In this document: positions 7,425 to 18,302 of the stretch, piece after piece
Position numbering within the stretch: the stretch's first letter is position 1
How the letters are laid out: every line of letters starts with the position of its first letter
IMG/VR virus record: IMGVR_UViG_3300007735_000448
Span: 1-20,273 of that record
DNA: 20,273 nucleotides
Origin: a virus
Strand: one strand, 5' to 3'
Program-made: the position numbers and the translations under genes
Notes under the pieces: model-generated
What the model saw: only the letters and a program-made list of their open reading frames with translations
The model's database searches: none
Told to the model about the DNA's origin: nothing

Positions 7425-7729
7425 CGCGGGAATAAGGGCACCGAGATTGAGATAACTACTGACTCTATATGTAAATAATAATTTTGTAAAGCAAAAGGGG
7501 GTTGGGACTCCTGACGGGGGGTGTTTCTATATTGAGGGGTGGGGGTCAAATTGTGGAAATTTTTATGGGGGGGGGGGGTGTTTTTAAAACAGATTATTGG
7601 ATACGTGGAACAGTATGTACGGGCGCGGCGGTGCGTCAAGTCTAGGTTTGGGGTGGTAGGGGCGTGGTGGGGTTGCTGATAACAGAATTACAGTATACGG
7701 ATTCTGCTCAAATTGTGGTGCGATTTGTG
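7425..7729. other. Gene-free divergent region next to the terminase genes, rich in G-runs
   Basis: About 300 bp between the leftward terminase operon and the structured region. No convincing gene is seen on either strand. The first 70 bp are AT-rich and may hold the late promoter for the minus strand (TTTACA and TATAGA on that strand, spacer only 15 nt, so weak). The rest of the plus strand is very G-rich: runs of 5, 3, 6, 4, 5 and 12 G between 7497 and 7578, and further G clusters near 7630-7672. Being next to the small terminase gene, a packaging-initiation site is possible but not shown. Confidence 0.5.
7497..7578 (+). repeat. Cluster of G-runs including a G12 homopolymer
   Basis: The plus strand has G5 at 7497-7501, G3 at 7504-7506, G6 at 7516-7521, G4 at 7536-7539, G5 at 7541-7545 and G12 at 7567-7578. 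Four or more runs of at least three G separated by loops fit an intramolecular G-quadruplex, though one loop is 14 nt. The G12 tract is a classic slippage site; its length may vary between individual phages or be a sequencing uncertainty. It lies upstream of the terS start, on the template strand for terS transcription. Confidence 0.6.
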
Positions 7730-10936: not shown

Positions 10937-12022
10937 ATGCAAGAACAGCAAGTCAAACAGCAGCGCGAGATCTCACTGCAAGAAGCAGCAGACCTTATCG
11001 CTAACATCCCAGACAATAGGTTCCTGCTACGCGGCGAGCCTGGGATCGGCAAGTCGTCTGTGCTTAACCTCTTAGAGTCTCATCCCCTGCTACCCGCAGA
11101 TGAATATGATTTCGTTTACGTAGACTGTGCGAGCCTAGACCTTGGCGACACAGCAGCACCGATACCGAACCGAGAGGAGCGCATCCTCGAATACTTCCCC
11201 AATGGCACATTCAAACTGCATACTGATAAGAAAGTAGTCTTGTGCCTCGATGAGTTCAGCAAGGGTGCAGAACCTGTGCGTAACATGCTGCATCCACTAC
11301 TCGAAGAGAACAAGCCTCGCATGGCAGATAAGTTCCTCAAGAAGGGAAGCATCGTATTCCTCACAGGTAACCTGTCCACAGATGGAGTTGGCGACAACCT
11401 CAAAGCGCACTCACTCCAGAGGGTAACCGAGTGTGAGATACGCAAGCCATCTGCCGATACGTGGTTACCTTGGGCTAGTGCTAACAACATTGCACCAGAG
11501 ATACGCTCGTGGGTATATGCCCATCCCGATTGTCTAGCTTCATATCGAGACCCTGGGCAAGAGAGCAACCCTTACCCATACAACCCACGCAAGCCCAATC
11601 AGTCGTGCGTGTCGCCTCGCACACTCTCAAGGTCAAGCAACATCGTGCACGTCCGCAAGAAGCTTACACAGAACGCAGTACACGTAGCACTTGCAGGTAC
11701 AGCGGGCGCAGCATTCGCTGATTCATTCATGACTTACTTGCAGTTCTCAGATCAACTGCCAACCCGCGAGGCGATACGGACTGACCCCAAGGGATGCCGA
11801 GTGCCTGCTGAATCAGGAGCGCAGGGGATACTTGTGTATGCCTTCATAGACACACTGGCTAAGGACAATATCGACGCTTACATGACCTATGCCGAGCGGT
11901 TGAATCCTGACTGGATGGCATGCCTCGTGTTGAGCATCGCCAAAGACCCAATCAAACAAGCTATCGCATTCAGCAACGCAAGGTTCCGCGACTGGTGCGC
12001 TAACAACCAAGACTTATTCTAA
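10937..12022 (+). CDS. MoxR-like AAA+ ATPase
   Basis: A 361-aa single-domain AAA+ protein. It shows Walker A GEPGIGKS (residues 33-40), Walker B VLCLDEF (101-107), a sensor 1-type FLTGN (141-145) and a likely arginine finger region LQRVTECEI (160-168). The C-terminal 150 residues form the helical lid. The pattern fits the MoxR branch, whose members work as ring chaperones with a partner that has a VWA domain (RavA-ViaA, NorQ-NorD and the chelatase pairs are known examples); similar phage proteins are sometimes labelled CobS. The VWA partner is encoded two genes downstream here. The ribosome binding site is GGAGG. The target of the remodelling activity is unknown. Confidence 0.88.
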   Translation: MQEQQVKQQREISLQEAADLIANIPDNRFLLRGEPGIGKSSVLNLLESHPLLPADEYDFVYVDCASLDLGDTAAPIPNREERILEYFPNGTFKLHTDKKVVLCLDEFSKGAEPVRNMLHPLLEENKPRMADKFLKKGSIVFLTGNLSTDGVGDNLKAHSLQRVTECEIRKPSADTWLPWASANNIAPEIRSWVYAHPDCLASYRDPGQESNPYPYNPRKPNQSCVSPRTLSRSSNIVHVRKKLTQNAVHVALAGTAGAAFADSFMTYLQFSDQLPTREAIRTDPKGCRVPAESGAQGILVYAFIDTLAKDNIDAYMTYAERLNPDWMACLVLSIAKDPIKQAIAFSNARFRDWCANNQDLF

Positions 12023-12039
12023 ACAAAGGAGAACACAGC

Positions 12040-12906
12040 ATGACTATCTTAAACAACGCAGTGCTTGTCGAACTTAACATCTCAGCATGGACTGCATACA
12101 AGCTAGACAAACAACAATCTGCCAAGGTTGTCGCAGATAACAACGCAACCGAGAGCGATGCGGCTCGCGTCAACAAGAACCTCATGGCAGGTACATCACT
12201 GCTCAAGAACATCAACGACTACGTTGCGAAGGTTCGCATCTGGCACATAGCGCAGACCCTGCCGTGGGCAGAGAAAGGCCCAAGGCTTTTGCCGATGGCT
12301 AACTTCTTCCGCTACAAGGAACAGCTTAATACGATGGAGGCAAACACAACAGCACTCGTTAAGACGTTCCTTGATGCTTATCCTAACCTCGTATCAGTAG
12401 CAGCATTCAAGCTAGGTAACTTCTTCAATCGCTCAGAGTATCCAGACGTGAGCGAGGTTGCTCGCAAGTTCAGCTTTAGATATGCCTTCACCCCTGTGCC
12501 ACAGAGCGGACACTTCATCCTCGATACGCACAACGAGGTCATCAAAGAGCTAGCAACTAACTACGAAGCCGAGGCTAACCGCAGGGTAGGTGATGCGATG
12601 AAGGATGCGTGGGGTAGGTTGCACGAGACGCTTATTCATATCTCATCACGCATGACTGACTCGCCACAAGATCAAGAAGATAAGAAAAAGCGGTATCACG
12701 AGAGCATGCTCACTAATGCTCACGAGCTATGCGGACTGCTTACTGCGTTCAACATAACAGGAGATGCCAAGCTAGAGCAGGCAAGACAAGACTTGGAACG
12801 TGCGCTCTTAGGTGTACGCATCGATGACATAAAAGAAAGTGCTTCAGTACGCAAGGAGATCAAGGAGAAGGTAGACAACATCCTCGCCGTTAACGATTGG
12901 ATATAG
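12040..12906 (+). CDS. DUF3150-like protein of the MoxR/VWA cassette
   Basis: A 288-aa soluble protein, mostly helical. The N-terminal third has the outline I know from DUF3150: a WTAYKLDKQQSA stretch, NKNLMAGTSLLKNINDYVAK, then IAQTLPWAEKGPRLLPMANF around residues 70-90. The C-terminal half is long charged helix (ARQDLERALLGVRIDDIKES). DUF3150 proteins have no assigned activity but occur beside AAA+ and VWA-type genes, as here. The gene starts 17 bp after the ATPase stop with AAAGGAGA, and its end carries the ribosome binding site of the VWA gene. The likely role is an adaptor or substrate-binding member of the complex. Confidence 0.68.
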   Translation: MTILNNAVLVELNISAWTAYKLDKQQSAKVVADNNATESDAARVNKNLMAGTSLLKNINDYVAKVRIWHIAQTLPWAEKGPRLLPMANFFRYKEQLNTMEANTTALVKTFLDAYPNLVSVAAFKLGNFFNRSEYPDVSEVARKFSFRYAFTPVPQSGHFILDTHNEVIKELATNYEAEANRRVGDAMKDAWGRLHETLIHISSRMTDSPQDQEDKKKRYHESMLTNAHELCGLLTAFNITGDAKLEQARQDLERALLGVRIDDIKESASVRKEIKEKVDNILAVNDWI

Positions 12907-12914
12907 GAGGTTAT

Positions 12915-14207
12915 ATGTTTGCACAAGCACTGCAACCACAGACAGTCGAGCAACGTCTGGCTACACAGAACAGACGCATGGCTAAGATCAACATCTCAAT
13001 CATGCGTGACGATAGGTTTGCGTTGTGGTCTGGCTTCTTATCGATGGGCACAATCAAGATACTTGATAAGAACTTCACAGCAAGAACCAATGGTATCGAT
13101 GAGGAGTATTCACTAAGCTTCATCGAGACTCTTACTGATAAGGAGCTAGCCTTCGTCAGGCTACACGAGATGCTGCACAAAGCATTCAAGCATCTCAAGG
13201 TTTACAACAAGCTGTACAAGCAAGACGCTGAGTGTGCCAACAAAGCATGCGACTACCTCATCAACTATCTGCTGTGGGAAGCAGACCCTAACGGCAAGAC
13301 TATCGCACTGCCCAAGATCGCACTCTTCGATGCTAAGTACAAGGGTCTTAACAGCAAGCAGATCTATGACCTGCTACGCAAGCAGAAGCAACAACAGCAA
13401 CAGCAAGGCCAAGGTCAGGGTCAGGGTCAACCCCAACAAGGCCAAGGACAAAGCCAAGCGCAAGGTCAGGGTGAGCAATCCCTTGATGAGCATATGTGGG
13501 AAGAAGCTGAGGGGATGTCTGATGATGATAAGAAGAAGATCGAAGAGCAGATAGACACTGCTATCAGGCAAGGCATCATTGCACACAACAAGAAGAACAG
13601 AGGCAAGGGGGCGGGGGGTATGTATCGCACCCTGCAAGAGGTACTCATGCCACAAGTAGATTGGCGCGAGCAGTTGCGAGAGTTCATCAAGCAAGCATGC
13701 CCAAGCAAAACCAAAACATCTTGGCGCAAGATCAACCGGCGCATGTTGGAGTTCGATCTGTATCTGCCTGTGCTGATCGGTGAGCAGATGAAGGACTTGG
13801 TGGTTGCTGTTGATACATCAGGTTCGATTGGTGACAAGGAGCTACGTGCATTCCTCTCAGAGATCAAGTCTATCTGTGAGGAGGTACGACCAAGCAACCT
13901 GCACCTGCTGTACTGGGACACTCGCATCGCTAATCACGAGCAGTACACAGAATCTAATCTTGACATGCTAACAACATCGACCCGACCCAAGGGAGGAGGC
14001 GGCACAACACCTAGCTGTATCGCTAAGTACATGAAGGAGAACCATATCAATGCTGAGCTATGCGTTGTCTTTACCGACGGTTGCGTTGGTGCTGATTGGG
14101 GCGGTCCGGCGGGAGATTGGGTATCACCTGTCTTATGGGCAATTGCGGATAACGAGACTGCGGTTCCGGCTTTTGGGTCGGTTGTACACATTAAAACTGA
14201 TAAGTAA
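12915..14207 (+). CDS. VWA-domain protein with an N-terminal HExxH metallopeptidase-like domain
   Basis: The start is set at ATG 12915 (AGGAGG 4 nt upstream); an ATG 18 nt earlier lies inside the previous gene. The 430-aa protein has three parts. Residues 1-155 form a domain with HEMLH at 84-88 (zinc metallopeptidase signature) and ACDYLIN at 111-117. Residues 156-188 form a Gln/Gly linker, and after a helical segment the VWA-like domain fills about 290-430, with MIDAS residues DTSGS at 300-304, Thr364/365 and Asp388 in FTDG. The combination matches the DUF2201-type (metallopeptidase plus VWA-like) family. It should couple to the MoxR-like ATPase. All key residues are present; whether it is an active protease is open. 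Confidence 0.85.
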   Translation: MFAQALQPQTVEQRLATQNRRMAKINISIMRDDRFALWSGFLSMGTIKILDKNFTARTNGIDEEYSLSFIETLTDKELAFVRLHEMLHKAFKHLKVYNKLYKQDAECANKACDYLINYLLWEADPNGKTIALPKIALFDAKYKGLNSKQIYDLLRKQKQQQQQQGQGQGQGQPQQGQGQSQAQGQGEQSLDEHMWEEAEGMSDDDKKKIEEQIDTAIRQGIIAHNKKNRGKGAGGMYRTLQEVLMPQVDWREQLREFIKQACPSKTKTSWRKINRRMLEFDLYLPVLIGEQMKDLVVAVDTSGSIGDKELRAFLSEIKSICEEVRPSNLHLLYWDTRIANHEQYTESNLDMLTTSTRPKGGGGTTPSCIAKYMKENHINAELCVVFTDGCVGADWGGPAGDWVSPVLWAIADNETAVPAFGSVVHIKTDK

Positions 14208-16202: not shown

Positions 16203-16970
16203 ATGGCTACAAAGAAAGTAACAGAAGATACGATTCAAATCGTTGAGATGGAAACCCAAACGGTTACGTTCCACGTACTAGGAACTACACCGATGATCTG
16301 CAACCGTATGCCAGAGAAGGCATGGCAGCAACTGCTTCTTCCTTCCGGTCGCAAGACTGCTGCTGAGAAAGCAGGATCAATGAAGCACGATCCGTTGGTT
16401 GAGTATCGGTCTTCACCGTACCGTATGCCGCAAGGCGATCATGCAACAGAGCTATCTGTATTGGCTACACAGTTCAAGGGTGCGCTACGTAACGCGGCAC
16501 TCGATATGCCTGGAGCTAAGAAGTCACAGATAGGTCGCCTGACTACGGTCGAGAACGAGCGTCTTGAGTTGTTCGGTGTACCTAAGATCTTCTCAAGTAT
16601 TACTCGGTCAGCAGACATCAACAAGACCCCCGATGTACGTACCCGTGCCATTGTTCCGAAGTGGGCATGCAAGGTTGATATTACTTATGTGCGTCCGGTT
16701 CTGAACCATACAGTTATCTCTAACCTCTTCGCTACAGCAGGTATCACAATGGGCGTTGGTGATTGGAGACCTGAGAAAGGTTCGGGCAACTACGGTCGTT
16801 GGAAGATTGTTGACGCCAATGATCCTGAGTTCTTAGAGGTAATCAAGACAGGTGGTAAAGCAGCGCAACTCGAAGCACTGGAAAACCCAGAGGCTTATGA
16901 CGATGACACTGAAGAGTTGCTTTCATGGTTCAACGCAGAGACCAAGCGTCGTGGTCTCAAAGCTGCTTAA
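16203..16970 (+). CDS. RAMP/Cas7-reminiscent phage protein
   Basis: A 255-aa protein of a phage family I know only as hypothetical. Three features resemble RAMP (Cas7/Csm3-type) RNA-binding proteins in the usual order. The first is an N-terminal strand with HVLGTTPMICNRM (residues 24-36). The second is ATQFKGALRNAALDMPG (88-104), close to the RAMP motif around SLKGALR. The third is a late Gly-rich segment GVGDWRPEKGSGNYGRWKI (184-202) like the RAMP G-loop. There is no endonuclease motif, no CRISPR array and no other cas gene nearby, so it would be a stand-alone RNA- or ssDNA-binding protein. GAGGA precedes the start. The RAMP link is inferred from sequence only. Confidence 0.6.
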   Translation: MATKKVTEDTIQIVEMETQTVTFHVLGTTPMICNRMPEKAWQQLLLPSGRKTAAEKAGSMKHDPLVEYRSSPYRMPQGDHATELSVLATQFKGALRNAALDMPGAKKSQIGRLTTVENERLELFGVPKIFSSITRSADINKTPDVRTRAIVPKWACKVDITYVRPVLNHTVISNLFATAGITMGVGDWRPEKGSGNYGRWKIVDANDPEFLEVIKTGGKAAQLEALENPEAYDDDTEELLSWFNAETKRRGLKAA

Positions 16971-16980
16971 AGGATAAAAC

Positions 16981-17445
16981 ATGGACAGAGCCGCAATCGC
17001 TAAGAGGTTAGAAGAGATTGCGGCCCTCCACGGAGGGTCGCTTACACCAGACATCGTAGTAGCAGATGCTAAGAATCCATCAAGTCCTCTGCATACTTAC
17101 TTTGACTGGAGTCTTGAGAGCGCAGCTTATAAGCATTGGGTTGACACTGCTCGCAATCTGATTGCTTCAGTTCGCGTAGTTATAACAACAGACAAGGTCG
17201 TTATCAAAGCTCCTATTTACTTGCGAGACCCAAGCAAGAAAGGCAACGAGCAAGGTTACACCACACTCACCAAGGTACGTAGCGATAAAGACCTGTCGAG
17301 AGAAGTTATCAACAACGAGGTCGCACTCATTGTTGGTGCGTTAAGAAGAGCAAAGAACGTAGCGCAGGCGCTCGACATGGTGGATGAGATGGAAGCACTG
17401 CTTGACCAAGTTTTAGTCCTACGCAACAAACTAGAGAAGGTTTAG
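16981..17445 (+). CDS. Partner protein of the RAMP-like gene, unknown function
   Basis: A 154-aa protein 10 bp after the previous gene. It contains LHGGSLTPDIVVADAKNPSS (17-36) and LHTYFDWSLESAAYKHWVDT, then SVRVVITTDKVVIKAP and a helical C-terminus (ALDMVDEMEALLDQVLVLRN). From memory, proteins with the LTPxxVVxDAxxPSSPLH signature accompany the GVGDWRPE-type protein in many phages; no function is assigned. The stop codon TAG runs straight into the first GGCAGG of the repeat array, so the array begins exactly where the coding region ends. Confidence 0.75.
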   Translation: MDRAAIAKRLEEIAALHGGSLTPDIVVADAKNPSSPLHTYFDWSLESAAYKHWVDTARNLIASVRVVITTDKVVIKAPIYLRDPSKKGNEQGYTTLTKVRSDKDLSREVINNEVALIVGALRRAKNVAQALDMVDEMEALLDQVLVLRNKLEKV

Positions 17446-18302
17446 GCAGGCAGGGTGTGGCGCGGTTGGTGGGGCGAGGTGAGGTTTAATTTGGCAGGCA
17501 CGGTGCGGTTGAATTTGGCAGGGTTCGGCGAGGTTCGATATGGCAGGCTAGGTGCGGTTCGGTTCGATTGGTGGGGCGAGGTGAGGTTTGATTTGGCAGG
17601 CATGGGTAGGTTCGGTCTGGTTTGACAAAGTGCGGTCTGGTAGGGCGGGGTTCGGCAGGTCCGGTGGGGCGAGATAAGGTCCGGTGGGGTGTGGTGTGGT
17701 CTGGTGTGGTATGGCAGGCACGATCAGGTTCGGAAAGGTACGGTACGGTTCGTTATGGCAGGCGTGGTTGGTTCGGTGCGATATGGTTAGGACCGGTTGG
17801 GTTTTTTCCGGCAGGCTAGGTGAGGTCGGGATAGGTGTTGTATGTAAGGTCTTATCAGGCAGGCAGGGTGGGGCACGGTCTTATTGGGTTCGGCTTTATC
17901 TAGCGTGGTTTGGTGTGGCAGGCTAGGTTTTATAAGTTGCGGTTTTATAAGTTGCGGTTCGTTTTGGCAGGTATGGTCAGTGAGGTGTGGATTGATAAGA
18001 CGCAGTTGGGTATGGTTCGGTGCGGTTCGTTTTGGCAGGTGTGGCGAGTGAGGTCGGTCACGGCATGGTCGGGCTTTTCAGGCAGGCGCGGTGTGAGAAG
18101 GTGAGGTTGGTTCCGGTTAAGTGCGGCATTGTAAGGTCAGGCAGGCACGGTAGGTTTACGTGTGGTTAGGTTCGGTTCGGTGAATTGAGTTTTGATGAGG
18201 CAGGCACGGTGGCGTTAGGTAACACAAGGTGTGATGGGTTTTGATAAGGCAGGTGCGGTGTATTCAGGTTAGATGGGGTATGGCGGGGCGAACTTAGGCA
18301 GG
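17445..18302 (+). repeat. Phased G-rich pentanucleotide array with GGCA phase markers
   Basis: About 860 bp without genes. The plus strand reads as a degenerate pentamer GGNNN (mostly GGTNN, for example GGTTC, GGTGC, GGTGT, GGCGA). At 18 places a four-base step GGCA, always followed by GG, shifts the phase: 17445, 17493, 17517, 17542, 17595, 17654, 17713, 17757, 17810, 17858, 17917, 17966, 18034, 18081, 18140, 18199, 18248, 18297. Ten of the 17 intervals equal 5n+4 (59 five times, 49 three times, 44 and 24 once). The other seven differ by one or two single-base steps. The 59-nt intervals are GGCA plus eleven pentamers. The array is on the transcribed sense strand, between a stop codon and the ribosome binding site of the next gene. 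Its function is unknown. Confidence 0.92.

What the first reader, a model, noticed from the sequence alone, without database searches (positions are those of the whole stretch)
17445..18302. An 860-bp array built of phased GGNNN pentamers with 18 GGCA phase markers
The plus strand is a degenerate 5-nt repeat (GGTNN dominant) that is not a plain microsatellite: at 18 positions a 4-nt GGCA step shifts the phase, and ten of 17 marker-to-marker intervals are exactly 5n+4. The remaining intervals are explained by one or two extra single-base steps. The first two bases are conserved while the other three vary, so selection appears to act on G-doublet spacing rather than on sequence. It is gene-free and exactly fills the space between a stop codon and the next ribosome binding site. 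I do not know a described element of this type.
Basis: seen in the sequence. Interest (0 to 1): 0.88.

Follow-up and report, generated by a model that had tools for sequence, protein, structure and literature searches.

The report
Phage guide-RNA array of a VIPR system
The odd five-letter repeat is a string of about 17 guide RNAs beside the gene for a CRISPR-like (Cas7/Csm3-fold) protein, a phage-against-phage weapon called VIPR that was first described in a 2026 preprint; this locus is a new member of it rather than a new kind of element.

Summary
Window 17445-18302 is a phased GGYNN pentamer array punctuated by 4-nt GGCA steps. GG autocorrelation at lag 5 is 0.35, against 0.00±0.04 in shuffles, and 10 of 17 long intervals are 5n+4. 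The same grammar occurs in more than 120 viral contigs; 746 of 1024 distinct units are 5n+4.

The statement 'no described element of this type' is wrong. The gene two upstream (16203-16970) is a RAMP protein. Its family profile matches PDB 36pp 'SUSP1 Vipr protein' (E 2e-16), and its model matches Csm3/Cas7. The locus is a VIPR system (PMC13142463, 2026): vipr, an accessory gene (vap, 16981-17445), then a vrRNA array whose NN dinucleotides pair with DNA while one target base is skipped.

I tested that code on 722 decoded guides from GGCA-punctuated arrays. Only the 1-nt skip gave hits beyond controls: 4 at E<1e-3, none for skip 0, skip 2 or shuffled guides. The hits fall in rival phage genes, including the conserved motif of another vipr and a helicase in a close relative of this phage. 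No target was found for the window's own guides.

Related phages share guide cassettes in conserved order (428:10). Verdict: real, important system, already described; new member.

The parts
16203..16970 (+). vipr gene (255 aa): RAMP/Cas7-like protein that is expected to bind the array RNA
   Evidence: Family profile A1 matches PDB 36pp_D 'SUSP1 Vipr protein' E=2.3e-16; AF2 model pLDDT 89.8 matches Csm3/Cas7 chains, Foldseek E 7e-6 prob 1.00, VIA Z 10.1; family lies next to arrays in 84 of 131 array loci, always on the array strand.
16981..17445 (+). vap gene (154 aa): VIPR accessory protein, N-terminal winged-helix-like and C-terminal long helices; probable DNA-binding protein
   Evidence: Family in 83 of 131 array loci, always on the array strand, median distance about 0; AF2 pLDDT 91.0; only middling winged-helix matches (Z 5-6: MecI, MarR, FOXO). 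PHROG_15946, unknown function.
17445..18302 (+). vrRNA array: GGYNN pentamer units punctuated by GGCA, about 17 guides plus two tandem GGCAGGCAGG junctions
   Evidence: same locus in 15 related phages.
17449..17492 (+). guide unit 1 (44 nt), shared with L004, L005, L006 and L018
17493..17516 (+). short guide unit (24 nt), only in this phage
17517..17541 (+). short guide unit (25 nt), only in this phage
17542..17594 (+). guide unit (53 nt)
17595..17653 (+). guide unit (59 nt, 11 pentamers)
17654..17712 (+). guide unit (59 nt); NN nearly unchanged in L007, L008, L013 and L018
17713..17756 (+). guide unit (44 nt)
17757..17809 (+). guide unit (53 nt), identical in 7 arrays
17810..17857 (+). guide unit (48 nt), identical in 8 arrays
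17862..17916 (+). guide unit (55 nt) after a doubled GGCA
17917..17965 (+). guide unit (49 nt), with an internal 15-nt duplication
17966..18033 (+). guide unit (68 nt)
18034..18080 (+). guide unit (47 nt), identical in 6 arrays
18081..18139 (+). guide unit (59 nt)
18140..18198 (+). guide unit (59 nt)
18199..18247 (+). guide unit (49 nt), near-identical in most relatives
18248..18296 (+). last guide unit (49 nt), followed by the closing GGCAGG at 18297-18302

Best explanation
The array is the vrRNA (guide RNA) array of a phage-encoded VIPR system. It is transcribed in the direction of the vipr and vap genes (inferred from co-direction). Each roughly 44-64 nt unit between GGCA marks is one guide of about 8-12 GGYNN repeats (inferred from grammar and from unit-wise inheritance). 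Vipr subunits line up along the RNA, one per pentamer, holding GGY and presenting NN (published for SUSP1 and P. fulva; inferred here from homology). The NN pairs bind double-stranded DNA of rival mobile elements with one target base skipped per repeat, usually the codon wobble position, and block transcription of rival genes. The GGCA step ends one guide and starts the next in a contiguous, tail-less array.
For: Vipr membership by sequence and by fold. Two-gene plus array synteny, always co-directional, in about 84 loci and beside most further vipr relatives: 62 of 78 newly fetched viral loci, all on the vipr strand. GGYNN grammar identical to the published one (PMC13142463). Decoding test: 722 guides against 3.1 Mb gives 4 hits at E<1e-3 with a 1-nt skip; none with skip 0, skip 2 or shuffled guides. 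The hits are a 12-dinucleotide perfect run in the conserved motif DMVRVGMGTADI of a rival vipr, an SNF2-type helicase motif in a close relative of this phage, a portal-like gene and one more ORF. At E<1e-2, 6 of 8 hits align the skip with the wobble base of the longest ORF there, against 0 of 5 shuffled hits. Within homologous units NN changes less than the scaffold.
Against: No target was found for the window's own guides, in 3.1 Mb of loci or by exact gapped patterns for four of its guides in all viral contigs. There is no separate conserved 3' tail as in SUSP1 vrRNAs. No transcript data. Wobble bias also appears in weak hits of shuffled guides, so it counts only for the top hits.
Confidence: 0.94

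Rival explanations
1. The array is a DNA-level element (replication origin, packaging or partition site) bound by a protein that reads GG doublets every half helical turn.
For: Fixed place in the genome, strand asymmetry, one copy per phage.
Against: Always co-directional with vipr, whose family is an RNA-binding RAMP; guides decode to rival genes only with the 1-nt skip; units are gained and lost as cassettes with unit-specific NN.
Confidence: 0.02
2. A selfish or slippage-grown degenerate satellite without function.
For: Short tandem duplications within units; variable unit number.
Against: The grammar is the same in many unrelated phages and bacterial contigs; NN is conserved among homologous units better than the scaffold; decoded matches exceed controls.
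Confidence: 0.02
3. The units are VIPR guides, but the GGCA-punctuated RNA is used differently from SUSP1 vrRNAs: overlapping vrRNAs span two units across a GGCA step, so the functional guide is not the unit between marks.
For: The preprint mentions 'staggered arrays with overlapping vrRNAs' without details in the main text; there is no tail after each unit.
Against: Matches to targets run through a whole unit from its first pentamer (L128, L220 and L063 guides); units are inherited as blocks.
Confidence: 0.2

Closest known systems
VIPR (Viral Interference Programmable Repeat), type II of Escherichia phage SUSP1 / Felixounavirus (PMC13142463; PDB 36pp)
   Same: RAMP-fold Vipr protein (E 2e-16 by profile; VpaE1 homologue E 1e-20), small co-directional accessory gene, intergenic GGY/NN repeat RNA, 1-nt skip code
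   Different: In VpaE1 each vrRNA stands alone with its own conserved 3' tail, and the neighbouring gene does not match the vap family found here. Here about 17 guides run on without tails, punctuated by GGCA.
VIPR types with staggered arrays and overlapping vrRNAs (PMC13142463, fig. S18)
   Same: Probably this architecture: contiguous array of many guides
   Different: Figure and supplement not held, so the type number and the role of GGCA could not be compared.
Vipr/vap homologues in Gordonia phage ODay (gp19, gp20) and Mycobacterium phage ByChance (gp40, gp41)
   Same: Same two families (A1 E 5e-75 and 3e-68; A2 E 1e-44 and 3e-37) with GGY arrays that also use GGCAGG
   Different: 29-30% identity to the window's Vipr over the aligned part; short arrays; annotated as hypothetical proteins.
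Class 1 CRISPR-Cas (Csm3/Cas7)
   Same: RAMP fold that lines up along a guide RNA
   Different: No cas genes, no CRISPR repeats; guide interrupted by protein-held GGY every five bases.

Membership tests
VIPR | Vipr protein: minimal RAMP with G-loop | tested here: met
   Profile hit to SUSP1 Vipr E 2.3e-16; Csm3/Cas7 fold; invariant G180, G184, R189 and G198 in A1.
VIPR | vrRNA made of tandem GGY/NN pentamers, 9-16 repeats | tested here: met
   Pentamer profile and information content; units hold 8-12 pentamers, so the lower end is one short of the published range.
VIPR | Minimal locus: vipr plus vap plus intergenic array, mostly in phages | tested here: met
VIPR | NN dinucleotides match DNA targets with a 1-nt skip | tested here: met
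   Met for guides of related GGCA-punctuated arrays.
VIPR | Identified DNA target of this window's own guides | tested here: inconclusive
   No confident target.
VIPR | Invariable structured 3' tail after each repeat tract | tested here: inconclusive
   No tail between units and no excess folding (z -1.0); the preprint states that array architectures vary between types.
VIPR | RNA expressed, bound by Vipr, represses target transcription | not testable with these tools
   Needs sRNA-seq, pull-down and a reporter.
CRISPR-Cas class 1 | CRISPR repeats and cas genes | tested here: not met
   No near-identical repeat-spacer structure; neighbouring genes have no Cas families in Pfam, NCBIfam or PADLOC.
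TIGR-Tas (recalled from own knowledge) | Nop-domain Tas protein with paired spacers in the array | tested here: not met
   The adjacent protein has a RAMP fold and no Pfam domain was found.

The most novel reading that the evidence does not exclude
GGCA is a guide delimiter of a tail-less VIPR class: a 4-nt step that breaks the five-base register between subunits and so ends one guide and starts the next. It may also serve as a homology joint by which phages gain and lose whole guides in a fixed order, a guide library without acquisition genes, with some guides aimed at the most conserved motif of rival vipr genes.
Probability: 0.35. Interest if true: 0.72.

Novelty: new member of a known kind. 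Interest (0 to 1): 0.55.

Why it matters
VIPR is a recently reported RNA-guided DNA recognition system with a non-contiguous code. This locus and its relatives give a dense natural data set: more than 1000 units and families of related arrays that differ by whole guides. The work supports the 1-nt skip rule, by sequence alone, on the GGCA-punctuated array class. It shows guides against rival vipr and replication genes, and makes the turnover of guides in phage populations directly testable.

Tried and rejected
(1) DNA-similarity search of the region in named phages: no match. (2) Rfam on the array: nothing, so no hammerhead ribozyme as in another VIPR array class. (3) Folding of the array RNA: no excess structure. 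(4) Promoter and terminator scan: no more sites than in shuffles. (5) Targets of window guides by exact gapped patterns in viral contigs. Pattern 17654: one hit, L260, where the likely minus-strand gene puts the skip at codon position 1, treated as chance and excluded from later counts. Patterns 18140 and 18081: no hit. Pattern 18199: 4 hits in unrelated genes, mostly not wobble-aligned, treated as chance. (6) One Bradyrhizobium guide in 266 genomes of the genus: no hit. (7) A guide shared by L012 and L015 reads W-A-C-E-V-R-I-T of the vipr of L220 over 15 of 15 bases but only 4 of 8 upstream; the follow-up search found that same site only, so it is suggestive at best. (8) Skip-3 'hits' are unmasked array ends, trivial. 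(9) The vap model has no confident fold match; winged-helix resemblance is middling only. (10) Laxer pairing (25% mismatch) in the substitution test mixed non-homologous units and reversed the result; the test was repeated with at most 3-7 differences, and at 9 differences it reverses again.

Full report
WHAT WAS CHECKED. The region 17445-18302 was read and tested. GG doublets recur with lag 5 far beyond 1000 dinucleotide-preserving shuffles (0.347 against 0.00±0.04). The array begins on the last base of the TAG of the upstream gene and ends 18 bases before the next ATG.

RELATIVES. The 154-aa gene just upstream found 15 close relatives, L004-L018, each with such an array at the same place. 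The arrays are made of units GGCA+(5 nt)n; 132 distinct units in 16 arrays. Identical arrays in three records from different metagenomes (L004, L005, L006) argue against an assembly artefact. Each whole record checked has the array only once. In 1024 distinct units, 746 are 5n+4, and the pentamer is G G Y N N with 1.52, 1.18, 0.63, 0.05 and 0.02 bits.

THE PARTNER GENES. Clustering of ORFs around 131 arrays gave two dominant families, in 84 and 83 loci, always on the G-rich strand and mostly touching the array. The order is A-B-array or A-array-B. Family A contains window 16203-16970 and family B window 16981-17445. Pfam, NCBIfam and PADLOC do not name them; PHROGs lists both as unknown.

IDENTITY. 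A profile of family A matches exactly one kind of solved protein well: 36pp 'SUSP1 Vipr protein', E 2.3e-16. Its AlphaFold2 model (pLDDT 89.8) matches Csm3/Cas7 RAMP chains (Foldseek E 7e-6, prob 1.00; all 50 best VIA rows, Z 8-10). [quoted passage not shown]). It reports a Vipr RAMP protein, vap accessory genes, vrRNAs of 9-16 GGY/NN repeats, pairing of NN with double-stranded DNA with a 1-nt skip, repression, targets in competing phages, seven types, and 'staggered arrays with overlapping vrRNAs'. The locus here fits in gene content, fold and RNA grammar. The SUSP1 clade itself is different: phage VpaE1 has separate vrRNAs with long conserved tails, and its neighbouring gene does not match family B. 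Gordonia phage ODay and Mycobacterium phage ByChance carry both families with GGCAGG-type arrays, annotated as hypothetical. The type number could not be assigned because the supplement is not held.

INDEPENDENT TEST OF THE CODE. I decoded the NN of all clean 5n+4 units (722 guides) and compared them with 3.09 Mb of fetched loci, arrays masked, with skips 0-3 and shuffled dinucleotides as control (earlier rounds). Hits with E<1e-3: skip 1 real 4; skip 0 none; skip 2 none; shuffled none. Skip-3 hits are unmasked array ends. The four: an L128 guide on the vipr of L037, 24/26, with a perfect run of 12 dinucleotides over DMVRVGMGTADI, the family's conserved motif; an L063 guide on L287 18320-18357, 24/26, in an SNF2-like helicase of the phage that carries L009, a close relative of the window's phage; an L220 guide on L222, 24/26; an L054 guide on L205, 22/24, in a gene that reads like a portal protein. 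Weaker but suggestive: an L114 guide on L147, in the phage that carries L011, and a guide on ByChance gp37. At E<1e-2, 6 of 8 have the skipped base at the third codon position of the longest ORF there, against 0 of 5 for shuffled guides. In weaker hits shuffled guides show the same bias, so it is not used as evidence there.

EVOLUTION. Thirteen related arrays hold 80 unit families, 36 shared. Shared units keep the same order in 428 of 438 pairs. Arrays therefore differ by gain and loss of whole guides, not by shuffling. Among near-identical units the GGY positions change 1.6 times as often as NN (P about 0.03), although between unrelated units NN is random. This is what a guide sequence under selection would show; the effect is modest and depends on the similarity cut-off.

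SHOWN AND INFERRED. Shown: grammar, synteny, Vipr homology and fold, code-specific matches for related guides, ordered cassette turnover. Inferred: transcription and processing of this array, Vipr binding, one unit equals one guide, GGCA as delimiter, repression of rivals by this phage. Not found: any target of the window's own guides, in loci or by four exact gapped searches, and any self-target.

VERDICT. The claim that no such element is described is not. The locus is a new member of VIPR with a tail-less, GGCA-punctuated array.

Noticed in passing
L287:18320-18357 (phage of L009): A guide carried by another phage (L063) matches a conserved SNF2-type helicase motif in this close relative of the window's phage (24/26), so this phage group looks like a target as well as a VIPR carrier.
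   Followed up: partly
window 7480-7680: Intergenic G-rich stretch with runs of 5-10 G between the two divergent gene blocks, with strong GC skew; not the GGYNN grammar; possibly a regulatory or origin region.
   Followed up: no
window 10937-14207: AAA+ ATPase (PHROG_1297) followed by a 288-aa gene and a DUF2201 metallopeptidase/VWA protein: a MoxR-VWA-like pair kept upstream of vipr in several relatives.
   Followed up: no
L128 array and L037:4630-4667: A natural VIPR guide reads the most conserved motif of the Vipr family itself, which suggests anti-VIPR guides that could hit many rivals at once.
   Followed up: partly
L209, L210, L213-L216, L232, L233 and others: Close vipr relatives without a detectable GGY array within the fetched flanks; arrays may lie elsewhere, be shorter than the detector's limit, or be absent.
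   Followed up: no
L163, L169: Bacterial-contig arrays with the same pentamers but a GGCGGTC-like mark in place of GGCAGG, hinting at other punctuation signals.
   Followed up: no
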